NCBI GenBank assembly: GCA_964019695.1
Contig: OZ026515.1
Location: forward strand, 140,799,549-140,863,548
From: Loripinus fragilis
Taxonomy: Eukaryota; Mollusca; Bivalvia; Lucinida; Lucinidae
Direction: 5' to 3'
DNA length: 64,000 nucleotides
Below the pieces are notes generated by a model that had not been told where the DNA came from, searched no databases, and saw only the letters and a list, made by a program, of their open reading frames with translations. The stretch's first letter is position 1, and the number at the start of each line of letters is the position of its first letter. The translations under genes were made by a program, and so were the position numbers. This document shows, one piece after another, positions 2,484 through 62,734 of the stretch.

Positions 2484-2644
2484 TTCTGAAATAAATAGTT
2501 TTCAAAACCAAAACTGAGTTCTGAATATGCCACCCAAATGTTTTGATGTTTACAAACAAGCAAAAATGTAAACATAGCCGTTACTGCTAAAAAAATGAAT
2601 CTTGGCAGAACTATAGTGGATACGGCGTTGTGTGTTGAATTAGA

Positions 2645-3400
2645 AGTAAGTAAGGGTGCAAAGATCAGGAAACGATACAATCAAGTGCCACACCTGACCC
2701 AGGATACCAATGGGAAAGTGACAAACTCACAGCAGACACCACAAACGAGAGCCAAGAGGTCAGCCCTTTCCCAGCAGGTGACCACAAAGCACATATAAAC
2801 AGACGTGCACAAAGACATAGCAAACACAAGACAGAACAAAAGCATAAAAGATCCACAAAAGAAGTGCCGCTTTGGAGCGGACAGTAAAATATTTTCCTGG
2901 AGGGCTTAAACCGGTTTAACGGCGCCAACCTCACCCTTAATTCAGATGTGGATCAAGACAAATAGATATTTGGTTTGCATGAAAGACCCCTAAATTATCA
3001 ATGCATCATCTCCTAAAACATATAAATCAAGATATAACAAGGAGATAAAGCAAAGATAAGGACTCAACAGTAAATAAAACTGAATACCGGAGCAAAAGAA
3101 ATCCAACAGGTAAACCCCGGTGGGCCCGACAAACAGCCAAAGCATCAGGCCCCTACCATCTCATCAATAGGTAAGTCTTTAAGTCGGAACCACCATAGAG
3201 TCTGAAGTCCGACCCCCCGCGTGCAATTAAAGAGGGAAGCAAAGTTGCCAACCGTGATTGGGTTGACTACCAAGCATGCAGTCTGTTGCAATACATTAAT
3301 GTTACAGCCAATCTTTTTATAATGGGAAATTATTTTAATGAACTGCGCTGAAAAATTATTAGAACAAACAATCTTCTTCAATTTATACACCAAGACACCA
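2645..3400 (-). mobile_element. Retroelement family A, copy A1, 5'-truncated
   Basis: On the minus strand this copy begins inside the C-terminal RT-ORF segment (about 3145-3400, encoding ...KLKKIVCSNNFSAQF... and ...GCNINVLQQTACLVVNPITV...) and runs through the 3' UTR to a terminus reading TGCACCCTTACTTACTT. It matches copies at 27,505-28,255 and 60,330-61,055 nearly throughout. Sharp 5' truncation with a shared 3' end is the expected product of target-primed reverse transcription. The RT part is intact for only about 80 codons, so the copy is dead. Confidence 0.85.
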
Positions 3401-4520
3401 TAGAAATCAGGTTCCGAAAGTCCTTGGCGAAAGAGAGATTAAAGTCCAACTTGGAATTTAGAAATCAAATCATAGTATCGTCTTTAAAATTTTAAAAAAG
3501 TTTTGCGAAGTTTATGATACCGATAGCCTTGTTAAAGAAGTTTCTGAGTTAACAATTTATTGCGAGTGTTGAAGTCAGCAACATAGCTAGAAGCTCTAGC
3601 AAAACGAATGAGTTGAGAGATCGTTGGTTCAGTCCCTCAAGGGGATCTTTTTTTGTATACTTGTTTTGCTCCTTTGTCTGAATATTGCTCAAAGCATCAA
3701 AATTTCATGTTCTATTGTTATTTTTTTAAATCATTTTGTTGAATCAAAGTGAAGCTCCAATTCCGCGAGGCTTATGCACAAGTCATTTGTAACCACGGCC
3801 CCAAGACCTAGGGGAGGTCGAGGGATAGCAGGGCAAATGAGCTTTTTGTTTTACTTTTGCATTGTCTCCACAGTGTGTGGGTAATTCGAGGAATAAGATA
3901 TACCAAGGCAAACATGACAGTGCAATGTAAAGCATACTAGACTACGGGGCAAACAGCCATGGTTTCATCAGCTTGCTGTCCCCGCTGTGTGGGGGTCATA
4001 ACCGGGAGCTGCATATAAAATATCTAAATCCCTACTGTTCCTCGGGACTGAGACGTTGTTACAAACGACACTCACCTAGTATTCTCTATATATTTGATTT
4101 CGGGTGAGACTAAAGCATCCTGCAGAAAAGTAATGTGCCACTAAAATGTTTAGGAATATTACAAAATCTATACAAAGCTCTTTATATTTTATCTCTCGCC
4201 GACATAAGTAATACCTTACTCACTGAGATGAGGATATAATCTGTTCTATAAAATATCAATTCTATTATTAAACTTTCTTGTCTATTACATGTGTGTATGT
4301 GCTCTTTTTCGTCAATTTACGATTATTTGAGCTATAATACGAGATTCTGGTACTTAACGCATCGGCGAGCAGCAAATGATCAGACAAGCCTGCATATGCA
4401 CAAAGTCTCCCCACAGCTTTCCTTACACACATACTTAGAGTTTGGAAAGGGATGAAAGCTCAGACAAAATAAAACACTTTTAGCCCCACTTGATTGCTGC
4501 ACACACTGTGAGTTTACGCA
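3401..4520. other. Non-coding stretch
   Basis: No exon is supported. At about 4069-4095 it carries GACACTCACCTAGTATTCTC, the same terminal motif found at the ends of repeat C copies near 8543 and 44953, so part of 3,760-4,100 may be another, diverged member of that repeat superfamily. Confidence 0.4.
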
Positions 4521-17991: not shown

Positions 17992-18686
17992 TGAAATTGT
18001 CATTGGAAAAGCTCTTTACCATATAGCAAACAGGAAAAGGTCTGATCAGTATGTATGGCTATACAAGATCATCCGGGCGTTAATTATTATGTCAGTGTCA
18101 ATATACACATATGGACATGCAATGAAAGCCGCATGTTGCTTTTGTGCATTAATACACGTATGATGAACTTAATGTCTTTTGTTTCATTCATTAGTCGGAG
18201 AGCCGTTTTCATTTTGTCCATCCATTTGCTAATTGTATAAACTATTATTGAAAACGTGCTCTAACGACCCAATATATATTGGCTCCTTAATTTTCTGCTT
18301 TAAATGGTTTAGTGATTTATATTAGTGTACGTGTGTTTGTGTGTATAAATGGATTAATACAAAAATAGAATCGCGGTATTTTATTTCGTAAGTTTTTTTC
18401 AAATATGTGTACATACATAATATGAGGAACGTGTTCCTGTAATACTAGCTTCATGACGTTTGATGCCTATGTTTATACGTGTCATGTTGATAGCGTGCCG
18501 TTCATACATGTACATGTATACGAAAGACTATCTAAAACAGTTGCATAGAACATTATAACATGTATTATTTTGCAATGTGTATAAGAATCAATTTTAAGAA
18601 AGAAAATGTAATTATTTATGCGCAGGCTGATCCGAAGCTTCGCTGGTCGCACATACCACATTGTTGGGAATCTCATGCACTGGCTC
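17992..18686. other. Non-coding stretch with MITE scrap
   Basis: No gene supported. About 18,620-18,686 ('gcgcaggctgatccgaagctt ... accacattgttgggaatctcatgcactggctc') is the right half of an M/I-type MITE and abuts the LINE fragment that follows. Confidence 0.45.
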
Positions 18687-18687
18687 A

Positions 18688-19010
18688 ACTTGCTTATATC
18701 CGTGGTGGTGGCGGAGTACATGTTCCATACTGTTGAATCATTCTCCAACTGAGGCTTGACAAGAGTTTTGTATCCAACAGATTTCAAGACTCTGTCATAG
18801 ACCCAAATATTTCTTTTTAGGGAAGCCTTAAACCGCCATTTTTGTAGTGATGTCAATGTGTGATTGGAGGTCGTCCACAATGGTGATACATAGGTATTTT
18901 GCTGCGGAAACTCTCTCCTGCTGAATATACTTAAAGCTGTATTTTTTGTAATTTGAAATACCTGACATTTAGAAGGATTAAATTGCATACAGTTGCATGA
19001 GGCATGCTAG
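18688..19010 (-). pseudogene. Decayed non-LTR retrotransposon RT fragment
   Basis: The minus strand encodes MQFNPSKCQVFQIT at 18,945-18,988, then in another frame SAAKYLCITIVDDLQSHID near 18,840-18,910, then back in frame SLKRNIWVYDRVLKSVGYKT and LVKPQLENDSTVW. The order (FNPSKC, YLG-like, LKRN, Y.TLV.PqLEy...vW) is that of the C-terminal half of the reverse transcriptase of Jockey/CR1-type LINEs in invertebrates. Catalytic motifs upstream (YADD) are absent, at least one frameshift is present, and the C-terminal side runs into an M-type MITE. A dead fragment of about 100 codons. Confidence 0.75.
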
Positions 19011-24669: not shown

Positions 24670-24758
24670 CCCGCGATAGCTCAGTTGGTAGAGCGGAGGA
24701 CTGTAGTGTGTACATGACTGTCATCCTTAGGTCACTGGTTCGAATCCGGTTCGCGGGA
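24670..24758 (+). tRNA. tRNA-Tyr (GTA), copy 1, with 16-nt intron
   Basis: The seven-base acceptor stem CCCGCGA (24670-24676) pairs with TCGCGGG (24751-24757), discriminator A at 24758. The A box TAGCTCAGTTGG and B box GGTTCGAATCC are intact. The anticodon GTA is at 24703-24705, and a 16-nt intron (24707-24722) interrupts one base 3' of the anticodon, the canonical position for eukaryotic tRNA-Tyr; exon 2 resumes ATCCTTAGGTC. A T5 run directly after the gene (24759-24763) is a Pol III terminator. First of four tandem copies sharing exon sequence. No CCA is encoded, as in eukaryotes. Confidence 0.97.
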
Positions 24759-24779
24759 TTTTTGTTTCGAGCTTAAAAT

Positions 24780-24905
24780 TATAGATATTTTCTTACCTAT
24801 CAGTTTAAACGTATGTTTGGGTGCTCAAAAGAACCGTCTCATTGAGATGGTTCTTTAAAGTACCCACAATATATGTTTTGGTTGAGATATAAGAAAAATA
24901 TAGTT
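24780..24905. mobile_element. MITE family E, copy in tRNA unit 1
   Basis: Hairpin core GTGCTCAAAAGAACCGTCTC then GAGATGGTTCTTT, with outer arms 'ttcttacctatcagttt' and '...gttgagatataagaaaa' forming weak TIRs. It is duplicated at the same place 3' of tRNA copy 2, so it predates the tandem duplication. Confidence 0.7.
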
Positions 24906-25136
24906 TTTCCGACTCACTCCACAAGCAGTAGATCCAGATCAAAACTCATAAATGAGACAGTAGATGATGTTTTGGTACAAAGCACATTTGTTAGCAGCCA
25001 AGGCTCAGTCTAGCCTTCACGCGCATTCTCACTGGCGTCATCGCTGCTCGAACACACACAGTAGGGACACAGACAAAAGCACAGGCCAAACATTGGTCAC
25101 TCCGCTATATAGCTGTACATTTATTCTTTAAAAATT

Positions 25137-25343
25137 TGAGTCGCGACATCTGATTTCCAACAATGTGCCAGTTTGACAAGCCTTAAGCTTTGAAACTACA
25201 AATGATGTTCGGTCAGTAGCTTAACACTCAGAATATCCAAGCCACTAGCAAAGGCTCTGATCAGCCTGTGCGTATGCGCAGGCTGGTCTGAGCATTGGCT
25301 GGTCGAATATACCACATTGTTGGAAATCTCGTGTCTCGGCTCA
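25137..25343. mobile_element. MITE family M, copy 2, inside tRNA spacer 1
   Basis: TGAGTCGCGACATCTGATTT at the left pairs with AAATCTCGTGTCTCGGCTCA at the right; the core CCTGTGCGTATGCGCAGG is palindromic. It is missing from the corresponding place in spacer 2, so it inserted after the tRNA units duplicated and explains much of the extra length of spacer 1. Confidence 0.8.
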
Positions 25344-25547
25344 AATGATGGTAAGTACCAAAATCTCATGAATTGCCACAAAATGTTGTTTTAGCATAAG
25401 CCATAAGTAGACGACAATTTCAGCTGCACTTTCGGCTAGCAGTGGGTGTTCTTCGCTGTAGATTATTAAAACTGAAGGAATGCTATTTTGCGCATGTTCA
25501 GTCTGTGTTTTACACATTTATATATACTAAGTCTCGGAGTCAACAGA

Positions 25548-25636
25548 CCCGCGATAGCTCAGTTGGTAGAGCGGAGGACTGTAGTGTTTAATTGACTGTT
25601 ATCCTTAGGTCACTGGTTCGAATCCGGTTCGCGGGA
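25548..25636 (+). tRNA. tRNA-Tyr (GTA), copy 2, with 16-nt intron
   Basis: Identical exon sequence to copy 1: acceptor CCCGCGA/TCGCGGG, anticodon GTA at 25581-25583, intron 25585-25600 (TGTTTAATTGACTGTT), terminator TTTT at 25638-25641. The 5' flank 'tatatactaagtctcggagt' is closely matched before copy 3, showing that the duplicated unit includes upstream sequence that may carry promoter elements. Confidence 0.97.
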
Positions 25637-25771
25637 ATTTTGATTCATACGATTGTATCTGTTCATTTGTCTTTTGTACACCTTCTGCATATTGCTACAT
25701 TTTTTTTATGTGTCATCTACCACTCCGGCAAACGAAACAGTGGCCTATAGGTTTAGATAAACACATTTTCG

Positions 25772-25905
25772 AGCATAAAATTGTAGATATTTTCTTACCT
25801 ATCAGTTTTAACGTATGTTTTGGGTGCTCAAAAGAACCGTCTCATTGAGATGGTTCTTTTAGGTACCCACAACATATGTTTGGTTGAGATATAAGAAAAT
25901 TATAT
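25772..25905. mobile_element. MITE family E, copy in tRNA unit 2
   Basis: Near-identical to 24,780-24,905 and at the equivalent offset 3' of the tRNA, confirming the segmental tandem duplication. Confidence 0.7.
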
Positions 25906-26262
25906 TTTTGGTACCCACTCTTAACTGAGGGCCTGGGCCGTCACTCAAACAGTCTGATGAAGCAGTCTGCTCCAGATCAAAACTAATTGATAAATGAGAC
26001 AGTAGATGCTATATTGGTACTTATCTGCTAGCAGCCAAGACTCAGACTAGCCTTCACACACAGTCTCACCGGCGCCATCGCTGCTCAATCACCCATTGAA
26101 GGGGGCACAGACAAAGGCCCAGGCCAAACTTAAGGTCACCCCGCTATATAGCTGTACATACATTTTTAATAGACGTCGGTAGCAAAACGTTGCGCATGTT
26201 CAGAGTCTGTGTTTTATACATGATTGTAAACATTATATAGACTAAGTTCCTGAGTGAACAAA

Positions 26263-26351
26263 CCCGCGATAGCTCAGTTGGTAGAGCGGAGGACTGTAGT
26301 GTTTGCATGGCTGTTATCCTTAGGTCACTGGTTCGAATCCGGTTCGCGGGA
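26263..26351 (+). tRNA. tRNA-Tyr (GTA), copy 3, with 16-nt intron
   Basis: Acceptor CCCGCGA (26263-26269) pairs with TCGCGGG (26344-26350); anticodon GTA at 26296-26298, intron 26300-26315 (TGTTTGCATGGCTGTT), terminator TTTT at 26353-26356. Exons match copies 1 and 2. A 68-codon open frame across it (26254-26460) is an artefact. Confidence 0.97.
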
Positions 26352-26931
26352 CTTTTGTTTCACGAGATGGTTTTCGTTCATTTATTGTTTTGGTCGATCA
26401 CCTTCTGCATTCATCTACACTTTCTTTTTAACTTCTCCACTTGCCTCTCTGGCAATCTAAGTTGGGCCAGATAAGGGTGAGTTATATGCTTGTGCGATAA
26501 AACACCATGTTTTATAATAAGAGACGGTGAACAATCAAGTGATCAAAATGATAGGGCTTACGGAAATTTCGTCCCGAAAATAGGACAACACAGATCAAGA
26601 AATCGTTCATGTCTTACGTGGTAAACTTTTCAAAATATTCGATAAGTTTATCCTTGGTCAGGGTTCACAATAAAAAAGGCACTTTATAGAAAACTGCAGG
26701 GAACCACGAGAAATAGTGTTTGATAGCTGCATGGAAAATGGCATAGAGCATTTCCCCCTTACCTGTGTGGTCGAAGTTTTGATAGGAAAACTCCACTGGT
26801 CGTGTGATAATACAGATTGTCCACCTAGAGTAGACGGCATTGACTGACAGAGAACGCGTAAAGTGGGAACAAATTAATTCCACTTATACATGTAATACGT
26901 AAGAAAATTAGATAGGTTTGTTGACGAACAA

Positions 26932-27020
26932 CCCGCGATAGCTCAGTTGGTAGAGCGGAGGACTGTAGTGTTTAGTTAACTGTTATCCTTAGGTCAGTGG
27001 TTCGAATCCGGTTCGCGGGA
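26932..27020 (+). tRNA. tRNA-Tyr (GTA), copy 4, T-stem variant, 16-nt intron
   Basis: Acceptor, D arm and anticodon arm match the other copies; anticodon GTA at 26965-26967, intron 26969-26984 (TGTTTAGTTAACTGTT), terminator T7 at 27021-27027. One exon base differs: GTCAGTGG where the others have GTCACTGG. This places G opposite G in the second pair of the T stem (AGTGG with CCGGT). The gene may still be functional, but this is the only copy with a broken stem pair. Its 5' flank also differs from the flanks of copies 2 and 3. Confidence 0.93.
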
Positions 27021-27504: not shown

Positions 27505-28255
27505 GTGTTGAAGTTGAAGAAGATTGTTGGCTCTAATAATTTTTCAGCGCAGTTCATTAAAATAATTTCCCATTATAAAAAGATTGGCTATAACATTAAT
27601 GTATTGCAACAGACTGCATGCTTGGTAGTCAACCCAATCACAGTTGGCAACTTTGCTTTCCTCTTTTATTGCACGCCGGTGGGTCGGACTTCAGACTCTA
27701 TGATGGTTCCGACTTAAAGACTTATCTATTGATGAGATGGTAGGGGCCTGATGCTTTGGCTGTTTGTCGGGCCCACCGGGGTTTACCTGTTGGATTTCTT
27801 TTGCTCCGGTATTCAGTTTAATTTACTGTTGAGTCCTTATCCTTGCTTTATCTCCTTGTTATATCTTGATTTATATGTTTTAGGAGATGATGCATTGATA
27901 AGTTAGGGGTCTTTCATGCAAACCAAATATCTATGTGTCTTGATCCACATCTGAATTAAGGGTGAGGTTGGCGCCGTTAAACCGGTTTTAGCCCTCCAGT
28001 AAAATATTTTACTGACCGTTCCAAGGCGGTACTTCTTTTGTGGATCTTTTATGTTTTTGTTCTGTCTTGTGTTTGCTATGGTTTGTGCGCGTCTGTTTAT
28101 AGGTGCTTCGTGGTCACCTGCTGGGAAAGGGCTGACCTCTTGGCTCTCGTTTGTGGTGTCTTCTGTGAGTTTGTCACTTTCCCATTGGTATCCTGGGTCA
28201 GGTGTGGTACTTGATTGTATCGATTCCTGATCTTTGCAACCTTACTTACTTTGAC
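27505..28255 (+). mobile_element. Retroelement family A, copy A4, inserted in minisatellite
   Basis: Starts in the RT C-terminal region (KLKKIVGSNNFSAQFIKIIS..., ...NVLQQTACLVVNPITVG...), runs through a well-preserved 3' UTR and ends TGCAACCTTACTTACTTT. The minisatellite resumes directly after it. This is the best unedited reference in the window for the hypermutated copy at 60,330-60,470. Confidence 0.9.
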
Positions 28256-28720
28256 TATAGGCACTATTCATTTAGAGACGTGTGCGTAGTGACACATTCT
28301 TTATATATGTTGTGAAAAGGACCAATTTTCATCGCGGCCTTTAACGACCAATATCTTTTAGTGTTGCTGGCCTTATGCCAATTTTCTTAAGATTGTTACC
28401 ATAGCGGTGGATTCTCTTAGAGATGTTGCCATTGAGAATCAATTTTCTTAGATGCGATACCCAAATAATTCAATTCTTTTAGATATGTTGCCATTGTGGA
28501 CATATTTTCTTAGAGGTGGTACCCTTAGGGATCGATTCTTTAGGGACCTATTGCTTTTGAGGTTTTGACCGTAAGAACCAATCTTCTTATAGAAGCATAG
28601 TGACCAATTCTCTAAATGCTCTTAGGGACCCATTCTCTTAGAGATGTTGCCCTTAGTGGCGGTTGCTCTAAGAGAGATGCTGCCCAAAGGGGCTTATTTT
28701 CTTCGAGCTACAGTGGAATT
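28256..28720 (+). repeat. Degenerate minisatellite, right part
   Basis: Same about 32-bp motif as 27,060-27,504 (clear units near 28,320, 28,400, 28,432, 28,500 and 28,630). The two halves were one array before the family A insertion. Confidence 0.85.
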
Positions 28721-56560: not shown

Positions 56561-57144
56561 TATGTTCAAAATGATAATCGAGAGCGCACAAACTCTATGA
56601 CATGATCATAAATTATATTGTTTAGGTGGTTCAAAAGTGAAAAGCCGTTTTTCTTTATACAAGCCAAAATAAAGAGAGCCATCTTTATTAAAAGTGTGTT
56701 CAATTAATTACGTAAAGTTCCCTGTGATTAGATTATGAGGTAATGTAGTAAAGAGAGAAGAAAAATCATATTTAGACACACTGGTTGTTAGAAAGTTTTT
56801 TAGATTTTAATTTATTAAGTACCTTACCTGAATGTTTAATAGACCAAAATAGATTTTTACCATTCCCCCCATAAATTTTTCACACTATTTTATAACATGG
56901 TTTTTAATAGTAGTTTGGCAAGAGGAATGTCAACGGTTTAGACAGCTCAGTAATGGAATATGCACTAGAATTTTACAATAAAACGTGATTTATATGGTAT
57001 TTTATGAAGTTAGGGTAGCCAGTAAAACGTAGGAAGCTAGTCATGCTTTTCATCAAAAACACTACAAACGTAGCAGACATATGCCGTCGATGTCTATCAT
57101 TGACACACCTCTCATTATGCAGATTATGCTCATAGGTCTTAGCG
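56561..57144. other. Non-coding stretch, nothing recognised
   Basis: No supported feature. Confidence 0.35.
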
Positions 57145-57548
57145 CTGACAGGTTCTTTTTTATGTCTTAATTTCTGTGTTCTGGGAGGTGATGCATTGAT
57201 AAAATTAGGGGTCTTCCATACAGACCAAATATCTATGTGTCTTGATCCAATTCTGAATTAAGGGAGAGGTTGGCGCCGTGAAACCGGTTAAAGCCCTCCA
57301 GTAAAATACTTTACTGACCGTTCTAAGGCGGCACTTCTTTTGTGGATCTTTTATGTTTTGTTTTGTCTTTTGTGTTTGTTATGCCTTCTGTTTATTTGTG
57401 CCTTGTGGTCACCTGCTGGGAAAGGACTGACCTCTTGGCTCTCGTTTGTGGTGTATAACTGTGAGTTTGCCATTTACACATTGGTATCCTGTGTCAGGTG
57501 TGGTACTTGATTGTATCGATTCCTAATCTTTGCACCCTTACTTACTTA
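57145..57548 (+). mobile_element. Retroelement family A, copy A8, 3' UTR
   Basis: 'gatgatgcattgataaaattag'-like start to 'ctttgcacccttacttactt'. 5'-truncated, no coding sequence. Confidence 0.85.
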
Positions 57549-58451: not shown

Positions 58452-59061
58452 ATCCTTTGATTAATTTCTAAATCAATATACGGATGAAGGGCATGTTGAG
58501 TATAACTCCTAGTAAGAAGTGCTGCATCATAAAGTTGGTGTGGTCTGTCATATAATTTATTAGCCTGCTAGACTGTTACAGACAAATGCAGCCTAAGATT
58601 AATTATATTTTGTCTGTTTGGAGAACTGATATCCAAAATTGAAAAAAGACTACAAAGTGATCCAGCGGCTTCCCTTAACAAGATCAAATTATATCATTTT
58701 CCAATAATTCCCTCTTTAGTCCAGCTCTAGGGAGTCAATCGTCAAATTCTCATGATGAAGGACGACTAGACAATTAAATAATATGACCGAGCTAATTTAT
58801 AAATAATTATCAGTGTTTCATATTTTAACAATATCTAGTAATACATATTTTTTTAGTTATATCCAGTGTTTCGCATTATAACAATATCAAGGTTTTTTTT
58901 GTATATTTAGTAATACCTAAGGTTGAGATATTAATACACGAGAAACCAAATACTTGTTTTCTTGCTGAAGGCAAAACGAACGGAAAGTGGAACATTATGT
59001 CATCGAACAAATGCCAGGTGCACCATTCTGTGCAACTGCTTGTATATGACTTGTATATACT
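58452..59061. other. Non-coding stretch, nothing recognised
   Basis: AT-rich; ends where family A RT coding homology begins. Confidence 0.35.
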
Positions 59062-60540
59062 CTTAAGCGTGAGCTTGAGGACACTAATGCTTATAAACTG
59101 CAGCCTTCTTTAAGTGAAAGGGTGATTGTTGATGGACATGGTTGTCATACAGCCCTACATTTTGGTGTCAAAGCTAAAGAAAATCAAGACAAAGTTCCTA
59201 CGTTGTACTGGTTACCTAAACTCCATAAAAAACCCTATAAAGCAAGATTTATTGCTAATTCTAGTTCTTGTACGACAACAGAACTTTCTAAATTGTTAAC
59301 CTCGTGTCTTACAGCTGTTAAAAAACATGTTATCAAATATTGTGAAAAGGTATATGAGAGAAAAACCCGGTAAAAACCTATTTTGGTCTATTAAAAATTC
59401 ATGTGAAATTTTAGATAAACTTAAAGATAGAGATTTCAATGAGACCAGTTTGTCTACTTATGATTTTTCTACTCTTTACACTACTTTACCTCATAATTTA
59501 ATTAAAGATAAACTTATTGATCTTATTGACAAAACTTCCAGAGAGAAGGCTCTCCTTACCTTGCATGTAATGACAGAAATGCATTTTTACTTCAGAAAAA
59601 CCTGAAAAATATCATGCATGGTCGTGTCAAAATGTATGTGATGCGCCGACCCTTTTGTTGGACAACATTTTTATTCGATTTCGCACCAAGCTCTATAGAC
59701 AAGTAGTTGGGATTCCTATGGGCACTAATTGTGCCTCCCTGGTTGCAGATTTATTCCTGTTTTGTTATGAGAGGGACTTTATGATGTCTCTTTCTGATGA
59801 TAAGCAGGCTGATGTTATTGATGCGTTTAACACTGCTTCCAGATATTTGGACGATATTTTAAATATTAATACTGTTTATTTGACAATATAGTTAGTCAAA
59901 TATACCCTTCAGAGCTCCAACTGATTAAAGCCAATGCCTCTGATACCGAAGCCGCATTTTTTGACTTGAATTTGTCAATTTCTAATGATATTGTTTCTGC
60001 CAAAATTTGTGGTGGGCGTGGCGACTTTGGTTTTGGGGTTGTCAGTATCCCGTTTTTGGATGGTGGAGTTCCTCGTTCTGCGTCCTGTTGGGTCTGTGTC
60101 TCTCGGTTCGTTCGTTTTGCTGGGGCATCTGGCTGTGTTGCTGACTTCAACACTCGCAGTGGATTGTTAACTCAGAAGCTTCTTAGGCAAGGTTATCGGT
60201 GTCGTAGGCTTCGCAAAACATTTACAAAATTTTATAGACGATACTATGATTTGATTTCTGAGTTCCAGGTTGGGCTTGGGTCTCTCTTGCGCCGGGGGCT
60301 TTCAGGGCCTGGTTTCTGTGGCTAGGTGTGTAGGTTGAGGAGGATTGTTGGCTCTGATGGTTTTTTGGCGCGGTTCATTAAAATGGTTTCCCATTGTGGA
60401 AGGATTGACTGTGGCATTAATGTATTGCAACAGACTGCGTGCTTGGTGGTCGGCCCAGTCACAGTTGGCAACTTTGCTCTCCTCTTTAATTGCACGCCGG
60501 TGGGTAGGACTTCAGACTCTATGATGGTTCCGACTTAAAG
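59062..60540 (+). pseudogene. Reverse transcriptase pseudogene, probably Penelope-like
   Basis: Pieces in successive frames give, in order: WLPKLHKKPYKARFI (about 59,209), YDFSTLYTTLP (about 59,459), VVGIPMGTNCA (about 59,703), RYLDDILNI (about 59,841, catalytic YLDD), FFDLNLSIS (about 59,959) and the C-terminal TACLVVGPVTVG...NCTPVGRTSDSM. PKLHK, the YDFSTLYTT box with its catalytic Asp, the GxPMGT box and YLDD are those of the Penelope-like RT lineage (assignment from memory; other eukaryotic non-LTR RTs are possible). At least four frameshifts (about 59,360, 59,580, 59,885 and 60,325) and stops disable it. The segment 60,010-60,470 is strikingly depleted of A relative to relatives (see the next entry). 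Confidence 0.8.
60010..60470 (+). other. A-to-G hypermutated patch in RT copy A9
   Basis: Over the roughly 130-bp stretch alignable with copy A4 (27,529-27,654 against 60,335-60,460), A9 has 22 A-to-G differences but only one C-to-T and one G-to-A by eye count. All but one of those A positions are also A in the independent copy A1 (3,245-3,395, minus strand). None of the changed A residues follows a G, while A after G is left unchanged, the known neighbour rule of ADAR deaminases. The patch upstream (from about 60,010) translates as glycine/arginine/cysteine-rich (CGGRGDFGFGVV) where A-rich codons are expected. Flanking UTR shows no such bias. Confidence 0.8.
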
Positions 60541-61055
60541 ACTTATCTATTGATGAGATGGTAGGGGCCTGATGCTTTGGCTGTTTGTCGGGCCCATCGG
60601 GGTTTACTGTTGGATTTCTTTTGCTCCGGTATTCAGTTAAATTTACTGTTGTGTCCTTATCCTTGCTTTATCTCCTTGTTATATCTTGATTTATATGTTT
60701 TAGGAGATGATGCGTCTTTTATGCAAACCAAATATCTATGTGTCTTGATCCACATCTGAATTAAGGGTGAGGTTGGCGACGTTAAACCGGTTTAAGCCCT
60801 CCAGTAAAATATTTTACTGACCGTTCCAAGGCTGTACTTCTGTTGTGGATCTTTTATGTTTTTGTTCTGTCTTGTGTTTGCTATGTCTTTGTGTGCGTCT
60901 GTTTATATGTTCTTTTTGGTCACCTGCTGGGAAAGGGCTGACCTCTTGGCTCTCGTTTGTGGTGTCTACTGTGAGTTTGTCACTTTCCTATTGGTATCCT
61001 GGGTCAGGTGTGGTACTTGATTGCATCGATTCCTGATCTTTGCACCCTTACTTAC

Positions 61056-62734
61056 TTTTACTCAATTACGTTCTGGCAGAAAGTAGTATACAAAATAAAC
61101 TGGTGCTTCTGGCGAGAGAAGTGTTGCACGTCTCATTAGTTCTAATGAACAGACACAATAAAACCGAGTCTGCTGTTTTTGTAGGTTCTCTCAATTTCTG
61201 AAGGATCCGTTTTTCCAGATTATTTATATAAGATTAATAAACAAAGGAGCTGCAATAATGAGCCCATAACAATACTAAGAATTCAGTTTTTCCAAAACTG
61301 TATAATAGAAATGTGAGTCCTTAAAAAATTTAGGGCAAATTTGTCGAACAGTTTCTTACAGCTGCTTCAGCCTATTCATATTTGATCAGAAGCAGTTTAA
61401 GTTATACACAATCAAGTTGAATTTCACATAGGCGAAGTAACGAGTCCTGACTAAGTCCTCTGATTAAGTGCAATTTCAACTAGTTACATAGGGTTATTCT
61501 AGTGCTGCTCATTAGCAACGGCTGTCAATTTATATATTTATGCTTTGAACCATTTCTTTGCATCAACACACGTTATTGTATTTGTTAAATTGTCTGCTTT
61601 GATACATAGAGCAAGTTTGCTGTCCATTTGAGCAAGCGCATAATCATGTTGTCGAGTAATGAAAGCTAAGACAAGCCTGCACAAATGCGCAGACTGACTA
61701 GAGCATATGCTGCTCTCTTATACAAATACAGATGTAGATGAAGACACAGATCAAGAGTCACTCGATACGTCAGCATGGACGTTTGAAATGAGGTTTACGC
61801 GCATATGCGATAAGGACCAAACTCTCGCCGGCTGACACATTTGAATTTAGTAAGTAGGTTTGCTGGTGTTTTGTTGTGTGTGTTTTAGTTTGGTAAACAC
61901 CTAGCTGTTGAAGAAATACTTGGTTGTTTGGCCTAATTGATTCTTATGGGCCCACGCATTTCTTGGTCAAATCAACCTGTTTTATGCTTTCAAAAGAGAT
62001 AGAATTGTGTCGCATTTACGTCCATCAATCAATCCGTAAATAAACCCATCGACCTGTCCTATCCAAATATCGCATCATCCGTCTCTCCCTTCCATCCATT
62101 CACCAAAACGATTTCTGAATTTAAAGTACTTTCACAATGATTGTAACATTTGGTAGGAATCTATCTCTAGAAATAATAAAAAGAGAAATTGTATACGCTG
62201 TCAGTAGATCCAATGACAAGAAATTACAGAATTATCATCTTTCTAAATATTAACTACATCATTGTGTTAACAGAATGCATATATGTACAGGGCTTTAGAC
62301 GGGCATTGATATGTAGGTATTAATTATGACTGAGGTAGTTCCTGGTCATATTCAGCATTTGCGTTTGTTAATTTCTGCAATGATTTACAAAGCCTATCAT
62401 AGTTTTATATTCCCATGGGTACGAAGAACTTTGTCTACTGATTACATCTGGAAAATAGGTGTTATTCATTATATGCATTTCAGTTGACTGGCAGGTATGT
62501 ATAAGCACAAAAGATTAATTTCCCTGCAATGTATATTAATGGAAATATCATATTACATTGAATCTGAACTGATATATGATCAATAATATGACGATTACTC
62601 AGTATAGTATTGCTGAGAATGCTACACTAAATACACTTTGCATGCCGAAATTAAAGGGAAGAACTCGTTGTTTTGACACAATGCCCTAGAGCGCTCATCT
62701 AGAATTTCATGTTCCTAAAGAGGGTATCATAACG
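61056..62734. other. Non-coding stretch with MITE debris
   Basis: Family I/M scraps at about 61,670-61,720 ('gacaagcctgcacaaatgcgcagactgactagag') and 61,770-61,830. An acceptor-like 'atatgcatttcag' with a GTATGT donor 11 bases later is at about 62,480; too short to call an exon. No continuation exon for the candidate gene was found. Confidence 0.4.

What the first reader, a model, noticed from the sequence alone, without database searches (positions are those of the whole stretch)
60010..60470. ADAR-like A-to-G hypermutation frozen into a retroelement copy
Against copy A4 (27,505-27,660), family A copy A9 shows 22 A-to-G differences and about two other differences in roughly 130 bp, while the adjacent 500 bp of 3' UTR shows only scattered, unbiased changes. 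A third copy (A1) supports A as ancestral at all but one site. No changed A has a 5' G, matching the established ADAR neighbour preference. The sense strand carries the G, as expected if the element's own RNA was deaminated and then reverse-transcribed. This would be an RNA-editing event fossilised in DNA and a possible host-defence footprint on a Penelope-like element.
Basis: partly seen in the sequence, partly recalled or inferred. Interest (0 to 1): 0.88.

Follow-up and report, generated by a model that had tools for sequence, protein, structure and literature searches.

The report
RNA editing scars in jumping-gene copies
At least 26 copies of one jumping element in this genome carry dense runs of A-to-G changes on one strand only, likely made in the element's RNA by the editing enzyme ADAR before that RNA was copied back into DNA, so the genome would hold a lasting record of attacks on a mobile element.

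Summary
In the window, copy A9 has 53 A>G among 70 differences from copy A1 across 60099-60470, but 2 among 32 in the adjacent 3' part. The edited block is 59999-60458. In the window's own 1.99 Gb genome, 26 of 40 examined copies (fished with an edited query, so not a frequency) carry such blocks. One has 309 A>G among 346 differences from an unedited copy. No copy has a T>C block. In the blocks 2,707 of 5,143 adenines are changed, with 5' preference T~A>C>G and a 3' G excess. This is the published ADAR rule, at ADAR's typical saturation. Flanks and edit patterns differ from copy to copy, so these are independent insertions. The genome encodes ADAR-family deaminase domains. The element is a Naiad-type Penelope-like retroelement with two conserved in-frame TGAs. 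A further 50 hypermutated proteins, 12 of them from three other subfamilies, lie in public databases. Best reading: ADAR edited sense RNA in double-stranded form, then reverse transcription fixed it. A-to-G footprints are known from retroviruses, and ADAR targeting of transposable elements has been reported. The scale, the element and the readout of template strand appear new.

The parts
59057..61061 (+). Copy A9: 5'-truncated, frame-broken copy of a Naiad-type Penelope-like retroelement (RT part, C-terminal part, 3' UTR)
   Evidence: Aligned to L030 1609-3625; broken frames; 3' end shared with other copies, CTTACTTAC
59999..60458 (+). A>G hypermutated block, 74 of 140 reference adenines read G
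   Evidence: HMM segmentation on 42-row alignment; site list
60209..60259 (+). AT-rich strip (by eye) inside the block with no edits (17 adenines in a row unchanged; permutation p 0.0001); also cold in the pooled copies
   Evidence: editing rises with local GC, rho 0.42
59844..59855 (+). RT catalytic motif Y-L-D-D, outside the edited block
60323..60325 (+). In-frame TAG of A9 (a T>A change, not an edit)
60513..60583 (+). SECIS-like stretch at the end of the reading frame, position carried over from L030 3068-3138
   Evidence: Rfam SECIS_1 E 0.019, 25 bits, below the gathering score 35; mapping
60942..61061 (+). 3' terminal part, almost free of edits in the 26 edited copies
   Evidence: 14 adenine sites in L030 3512-3625, 6 edits in all
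2641..3620 (-). Copy A1, unedited, opposite strand: reference for polarity
27505..28256 (+). Copy A4, unedited: reference for polarity

Best explanation
The A-to-G blocks are DNA copies of element RNA whose adenines were likely deaminated to inosine by a host ADAR while that RNA was double-stranded, and reverse transcription then likely fixed each inosine as G. Shown: dense sense-strand A>G blocks in 26 copies, ADAR-like neighbour preference, about half of the adenines in blocks changed, no T>C blocks, insertions with different flanks and one common type of 3' end, ADAR-family deaminase domains in the genome. Inferred: the editing enzyme, the double-stranded state (sense RNA paired with antisense RNA from oppositely oriented or inverted copies), and that editing came before reverse transcription. 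Because only sense A>G occurs, the RNA that served as template was, on this reading, the sense transcript.
For: Type: 2,652 A>G of 3,208 substitutions in 26 edited copies against 27 A>G of 212 in 16 unedited rows. Strand: T>C blocks 0 of 40 copies with the same HMM. Density: 2,621 of 4,933 or 2,707 of 5,143 adenines in blocks; PMC2790459 (Background section read) gives ADAR up to 50% of adenosines on dsRNA of about 100 bp or more and 5' preference A=U>C>G. Context: 5' T .620, A .607, C .441, G .355 (chi2 251, p 4e-54), 3' G .606 against .49-.53; within-copy shuffles 0 of 2000 reach either value; positive in 26 of 26 copies. Separate sample, 36 database proteins not in the fetched loci: second-codon-position changes 5' U .638, A .593, C .417, G .434. 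Duplex: editing rate, corrected for neighbours, rises with local GC, rho 0.42, p 9e-18, 382 sites, sites not independent. Independence: different flanks, same type of 3' end, no identical pattern. Enzyme: PF02137 matches over the cut-off, 12 on four contigs. Molluscan ADAR1 disfavours GA (PMC6651903, passages).
Against: No RNA reads could be examined. The antisense partner was not identified: identity to three diverged neighbouring copies does not track editing, and the sense RNA alone folds no better than shuffles (z 0.45). The 5' C and 5' G rates are not zero (.44.36); in the protein sample G is not below C (.434 against .417). Edited copies carry more other substitutions than unedited ones (median 1.24% against 0.64%), partly because the reference was built from low-edit copies, so same-age insertion is not shown. 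0 of 29 copies picked by similarity to A9's UTR are edited. PF02137 also covers tRNA-type deaminases (recalled), and double-stranded-RNA-binding domains were not looked for.
Confidence: 0.93

Rival explanations
1. The element's own reverse transcriptase misreads template adenines in bursts, as in diversity-generating retroelements (recalled), putting C opposite A.
For: Strand-specific and adenine-specific, seen in copies of a reverse-transcribed element.
Against: A>C and A>T are not raised (35 and 46 against 2,652 A>G over 26 copies), whereas adenine mutagenesis by such RTs gives all three bases (recalled). The neighbour rule and the rise with GC match ADAR. Blocks start and stop inside single copies.
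Confidence: 0.04
2. Adenine deamination of DNA, for example by ADAR on RNA:DNA hybrids during or after integration.
For: ADARs can edit DNA in hybrids (title in the reference list of PMC12925331, seen).
Against: Editing of first-strand cDNA in the hybrid would give sense T>C, and no T>C block was found in 40 copies. The opposite outcome needs deamination of the second strand only.
Confidence: 0.02
3. An old G-rich subfamily that spread by transposition.
For: Many copies and many database proteins carry G-rich blocks.
Against: No two of 300 comparable pairs share a pattern and block limits differ. Codon positions are hit alike. The 59 hypermutated database proteins stand for clusters of 1 to 5 members, beside unedited clusters of thousands.
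Confidence: 0.005
4. C-to-U deamination (AID/APOBEC or RIP-like) of the copies taken as unedited, so that A is the derived state.
For: G>A is the reverse of A>G.
Against: The A state is shared by A1, A4 and 14 other unedited loci, by database clusters with thousands of members, and encodes the protein that they share.
Confidence: 0.005

Closest known systems
ADAR A-to-G hypermutation of retroviruses (Rous-associated virus, avian leukosis virus)
   Same: Stretches with nearly 50% of adenosines replaced by guanosine (PMC12925331, passages)
   Different: Those are infectious retroviruses; here it is 26 verified copies of a Penelope-like element fixed in a genome
ADAR targeting of transposable elements, Drosophila mdg1 cited
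   Same: PMC2790459 (Background section) says ADARs target transposable elements, citing among others a 1993 paper on mdg1 subfamilies (that paper not seen)
   Different: LTR element in a fly; no many-copy block analysis known to me
RNA hyper-editing of Penelope transcripts in lizard
   Same: PMC5625713 (passages): Penelope in lizard with over 40,000 edited sites
   Different: Seen in RNA reads, not as fixed A>G in genomic copies
Naiad Penelope-like elements (Craig et al. 2021, recalled; not held)
   Same: GIY-YIG ahead of RT, CxC-like motif, in-frame TGA codons with a SECIS-like stretch
   Different: No A-to-G hypermutation of Naiads known to me
APOBEC G-to-A DNA editing of retroelements (recalled)
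   Same: Deaminase footprint in genomic retroelement copies
   Different: Other base, other nucleic acid (minus-strand DNA)

Membership tests
ADAR RNA hyper-editing footprint | A>G only, clustered, about half of adenines | tested here: met
ADAR RNA hyper-editing footprint | 5' preference U=A>C>G | tested here: met
   (26 of 26 copies favour A/T); in the protein sample U and A lead, C and G are alike
ADAR RNA hyper-editing footprint | Edits on one strand only, the sense strand, with no complementary T>C blocks | tested here: met
   0 T>C blocks in 40 copies
ADAR RNA hyper-editing footprint | Long double-stranded RNA substrate | tested here: inconclusive
   Segments from a few nt to about 1,600 nt, rate rises with GC; partner not found
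ADAR RNA hyper-editing footprint | Host encodes ADAR-family deaminase domains | tested here: met
   PF02137, 12 matches over cut-off on four contigs; RNA-binding domains not looked for
ADAR RNA hyper-editing footprint | Inosine in the element's RNA | not testable with these tools
   no RNA data
Naiad-type Penelope-like element | RT related to PLE RTs | tested here: inconclusive
   Pfam RVT_1 only E 0.018; YLDD motif; no tree made
Naiad-type Penelope-like element | GIY-YIG endonuclease N-terminal of RT | tested here: inconclusive
   Motif CGMQYVGQTGRSLKTRFREH upstream of the RT; Pfam GIY-YIG E 0.019, 15.7 bits, below the cut-off 22.6
Naiad-type Penelope-like element | In-frame TGA (selenocysteine) with SECIS, as recalled for clams | tested here: inconclusive
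   TGA at both places in 6 of 7 copies; in the seventh (L018) only one of the two was found; SECIS_1 E 0.019 below gathering
APOBEC/AID editing | G>A or C>T blocks | tested here: not met
   Two G>A and two C>T segments in 40 copies, 3 to 7 changes each
Diversity-generating retroelement mutagenesis | Adenine to any base | tested here: not met
   A>C 35, A>T 46, A>G 2,652

The most novel reading that the evidence does not exclude
ADAR is a standing germline barrier to Naiad retroelements: each edited insertion is the record of one RNA caught as duplex. The archive shows that the sense transcript is the retrotransposition template, and that only RNAs with a near-unedited last ~110 nt are copied. 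The same footprint in four subfamilies suggests that this recurs across many invertebrate genomes.
Probability: 0.4. Interest if true: 0.9.

Novelty: new variant of a known kind. Interest (0 to 1): 0.8.

Why it matters
RNA editing is normally lost with the RNA. Here it appears to be written into a genome many times over, so an assembly alone can report which retroelement RNAs met ADAR, over what length, and which strand was reverse-transcribed. For Penelope-like elements the template strand has been an open question: PMC3846280 (passages) argues that self-priming would have to occur on an antisense template. The all-sense signature speaks for the sense transcript in these insertions. A>G cannot create a stop codon, so edited copies can keep open frames and enter protein databases as odd 'proteins', which matters for annotation.

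Tried and rejected
Old subfamily, codon-constrained variant, C-to-U editing of the other copies, and RT-intrinsic mutagenesis were tested or weighed and set aside (see rivals). Heteroduplex with diverged neighbours as the cause of cold spots: no correlation with three neighbouring copies. Intramolecular folding of the sense RNA: z 0.45. Other families in the window with the same footprint: no pair without A9 flagged among 71 self-matches. An editing-blind sample by the 3' end: the search found nothing, not even the source copy; the tool skips words that are very common. A control retroelement (window 18482-19006): not completed, so whether other element families in this genome are edited is untested. 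Loci from viral and prokaryote collections: none. Target-site duplications: a simple scan found shared words of 6-9 bases for 13 of 40 copies, not checked for position. Literature: ten searches (listings seen) showed no report of A>G-hypermutated genomic copies of Penelope-like elements; the library lacks most subscription journals, and the key Naiad paper is not held. Corrected on checking: nine, not eight, of the 59 hypermutated proteins lie in fetched loci, and three of the five reference proteins taken for separate subfamilies are 97% identical to each other, leaving three other subfamilies, not five.

Full report
What was claimed.

The observation. Against A1, A9 has 53 A>G of 70 differences over 60099-60470 but 2 of 32 over 60471-61060; against A4, 22 of 26 and 0 of 22. 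The block runs from 59999 to 60458 with sharp ends: 3 of 367 adenines outside it read G. It spans the C-terminal part of the reading frame and shows at protein level as Y>C, D>G, K>R/E/G, I>V, N>D/S/G and T>A.

The rest of the family. The window lies on contig C2 of a 1,987,113,829-base genome. The 39 best other matches to the A9 block were fetched. With A9, A1 and A4 they gave a 42-row alignment in which 26 rows carry A>G blocks and 16 do not. Since the query was an edited sequence, 25 of 39 is not a frequency: 29 copies chosen by similarity to A9's UTR contain no edited one. A search with an edited copy (L025) listed 40 of 9,864 first-look candidates; 27 score above 1,000 bits, the level that 20 of 25 known edited loci and 0 of 14 unedited loci exceed. 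Seventeen of these 27 are fetched loci; ten are not and are predicted, not read, to be edited. The list is incomplete: it lacks three fetched edited loci that pass the level (L013, L021, L029). Edited copies are thus dozens among what may be thousands.

Spectrum and strand. Over the 26 edited copies A>G is 2,652 of 3,208 substitutions; C>T is next with 123, T>C 58. In the 16 unedited rows A>G is 27 of 212. Against one real unedited copy (L030), copy L018 has 309 A>G of 346 differences and L011 46 of 55. The same segmentation run for T>C finds nothing in 40 copies, and for G>A and C>T two segments each, of 3 to 7 changes.

Context. With L030 as reference, 2,707 of 5,143 adenines in blocks are changed: 5' T .620, A .607, C .441, G .355; 3' G .606 against .49-.53. 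Within-copy shuffling reaches neither value in 2,000 trials, and 26 of 26 copies show the 5' A/T preference, the weakest 0.01 (L023). One position where L030 itself is the odd copy (3465) adds at most 23 false edits. PMC2790459 (Background section) states for ADARs A=U>C>G, dsRNA of about 100 bp or longer and up to 50% of adenosines. PMC6651903 (passages) reports GA as the weak target of molluscan ADAR1.

A duplex substrate. Corrected for neighbours, the editing rate of 382 sites rises with local GC (rho 0.42). The cold strips near window 59850-59888 and 60209-60248 are AT-rich by eye. The sense RNA alone has no unusual fold, so an antisense partner is inferred; oppositely oriented neighbours exist (L021, L026), but none was shown to be the partner. 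The last ~110 nt (L030 3512-3625) are almost never edited: 6 edits over 14 sites, 9 to 25 copies per site. Either the duplex ends there or RNAs edited there are not accepted by the RT; this is not resolved.

Before insertion, and independent. Copies end in the same CTTACTTAC-type 3' sequence (variants such as CCTTATTAC occur; in L017 the aligned piece stops earlier, at a tandem partial copy), while flanks differ and 5' ends nearly always do: L028 and L036 start at the same base in different flanks. Edit patterns are never identical (300 of 325 pairs comparable). Codon positions are hit alike. This fits one editing event per RNA before target-primed reverse transcription.

The element. L030 and its kin read GIY-YIG-like motif, then RT, with two in-frame TGA codons found in 6 of 7 copies tested and one of the two in the seventh, a weak GIY-YIG match and a weak SECIS match at the end of the frame. 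This is the layout that I recall for Naiad elements, whose clam members are described as selenoproteins; that paper could not be read. A clam is inferred from that recollection and from one related database protein filed under a Candidatus Thiodiazotropha bin, a symbiont of lucinid clams (recalled).

Other subfamilies. Of 213 database proteins from two searches (only the best 120 hits of each are listed), 17 served as references and 196 were tested; 59 are hypermutated by a simple rule (at least 15 A>G-type residues and more than three times all others): 47 in this family, 12 nearest to five other references. Three of those five are 97% identical to each other, so the 12 fall into three other subfamilies (9, 2 and 1), 75-81% identical to this one. 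Nine of the 59 are encoded by fetched loci, so 50 are further copies, in this genome or others. Under another rule one search had 44 edited, 121 not, and 48 left out as other subfamilies; six of the 121 carry 19 to 64 A>G-type changes but also many others. For the 36 edited ones outside the fetched loci the second codon position gives 5' U .638, A .593, C .417, G .434.

The enzyme. The genome holds 12 matches to the ADAR-type deaminase family PF02137 above its cut-off on four contigs; the tool's 14 control genomes gave none. The family also covers tRNA-type deaminases (recalled), and RNA-binding domains were not looked for.

Known and new. A-to-G stretches near 50% are known in avian retroviruses (PMC12925331, passages). 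ADARs are said to target transposable elements (PMC2790459). Lizard Penelope RNA is heavily edited (PMC5625713, passages). I found no report of many genomic copies of a Penelope-like element carrying fixed editing (ten searches, listed under Tried and rejected). So: a known enzyme and a known kind of footprint, in a new place and at a scale that makes it usable, above all for the template-strand question.

Noticed in passing
L030:1176-1178 and L030:1590-1592: Two in-frame TGA codons conserved between near-identical copies, with a SECIS-like stretch at L030:3068-3138: a predicted selenoprotein retroelement.
   Followed up: partly
L030:3512-3625, window ~60942-61061: The last ~110 nt are nearly free of edits in the edited copies, perhaps because the RT needs them unedited.
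   Followed up: partly
L026:173-1354 (oriented) and L021:339-2321 (oriented): Diverged element copies (86.6% and 71.2% identical to L030) lie in opposite orientation next to younger ones; read-through transcripts could form long hairpins.
   Followed up: partly
window 24670-27020: Four tRNA genes of 89 bases in tandem, about 0.7-0.9 kb apart; their length suggests an intron in each.
   Followed up: no
window 56587-57051: An inverted, 71% identical piece of a related element just upstream of another family copy (57154-57547).
   Followed up: no
database protein P0175: A related element protein is filed under a Candidatus Thiodiazotropha genome bin, probably host DNA in a symbiont assembly.
   Followed up: partly
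database proteins: Hypermutated copies keep open frames because A>G makes no stop codons, and so populate protein databases.
   Followed up: yes
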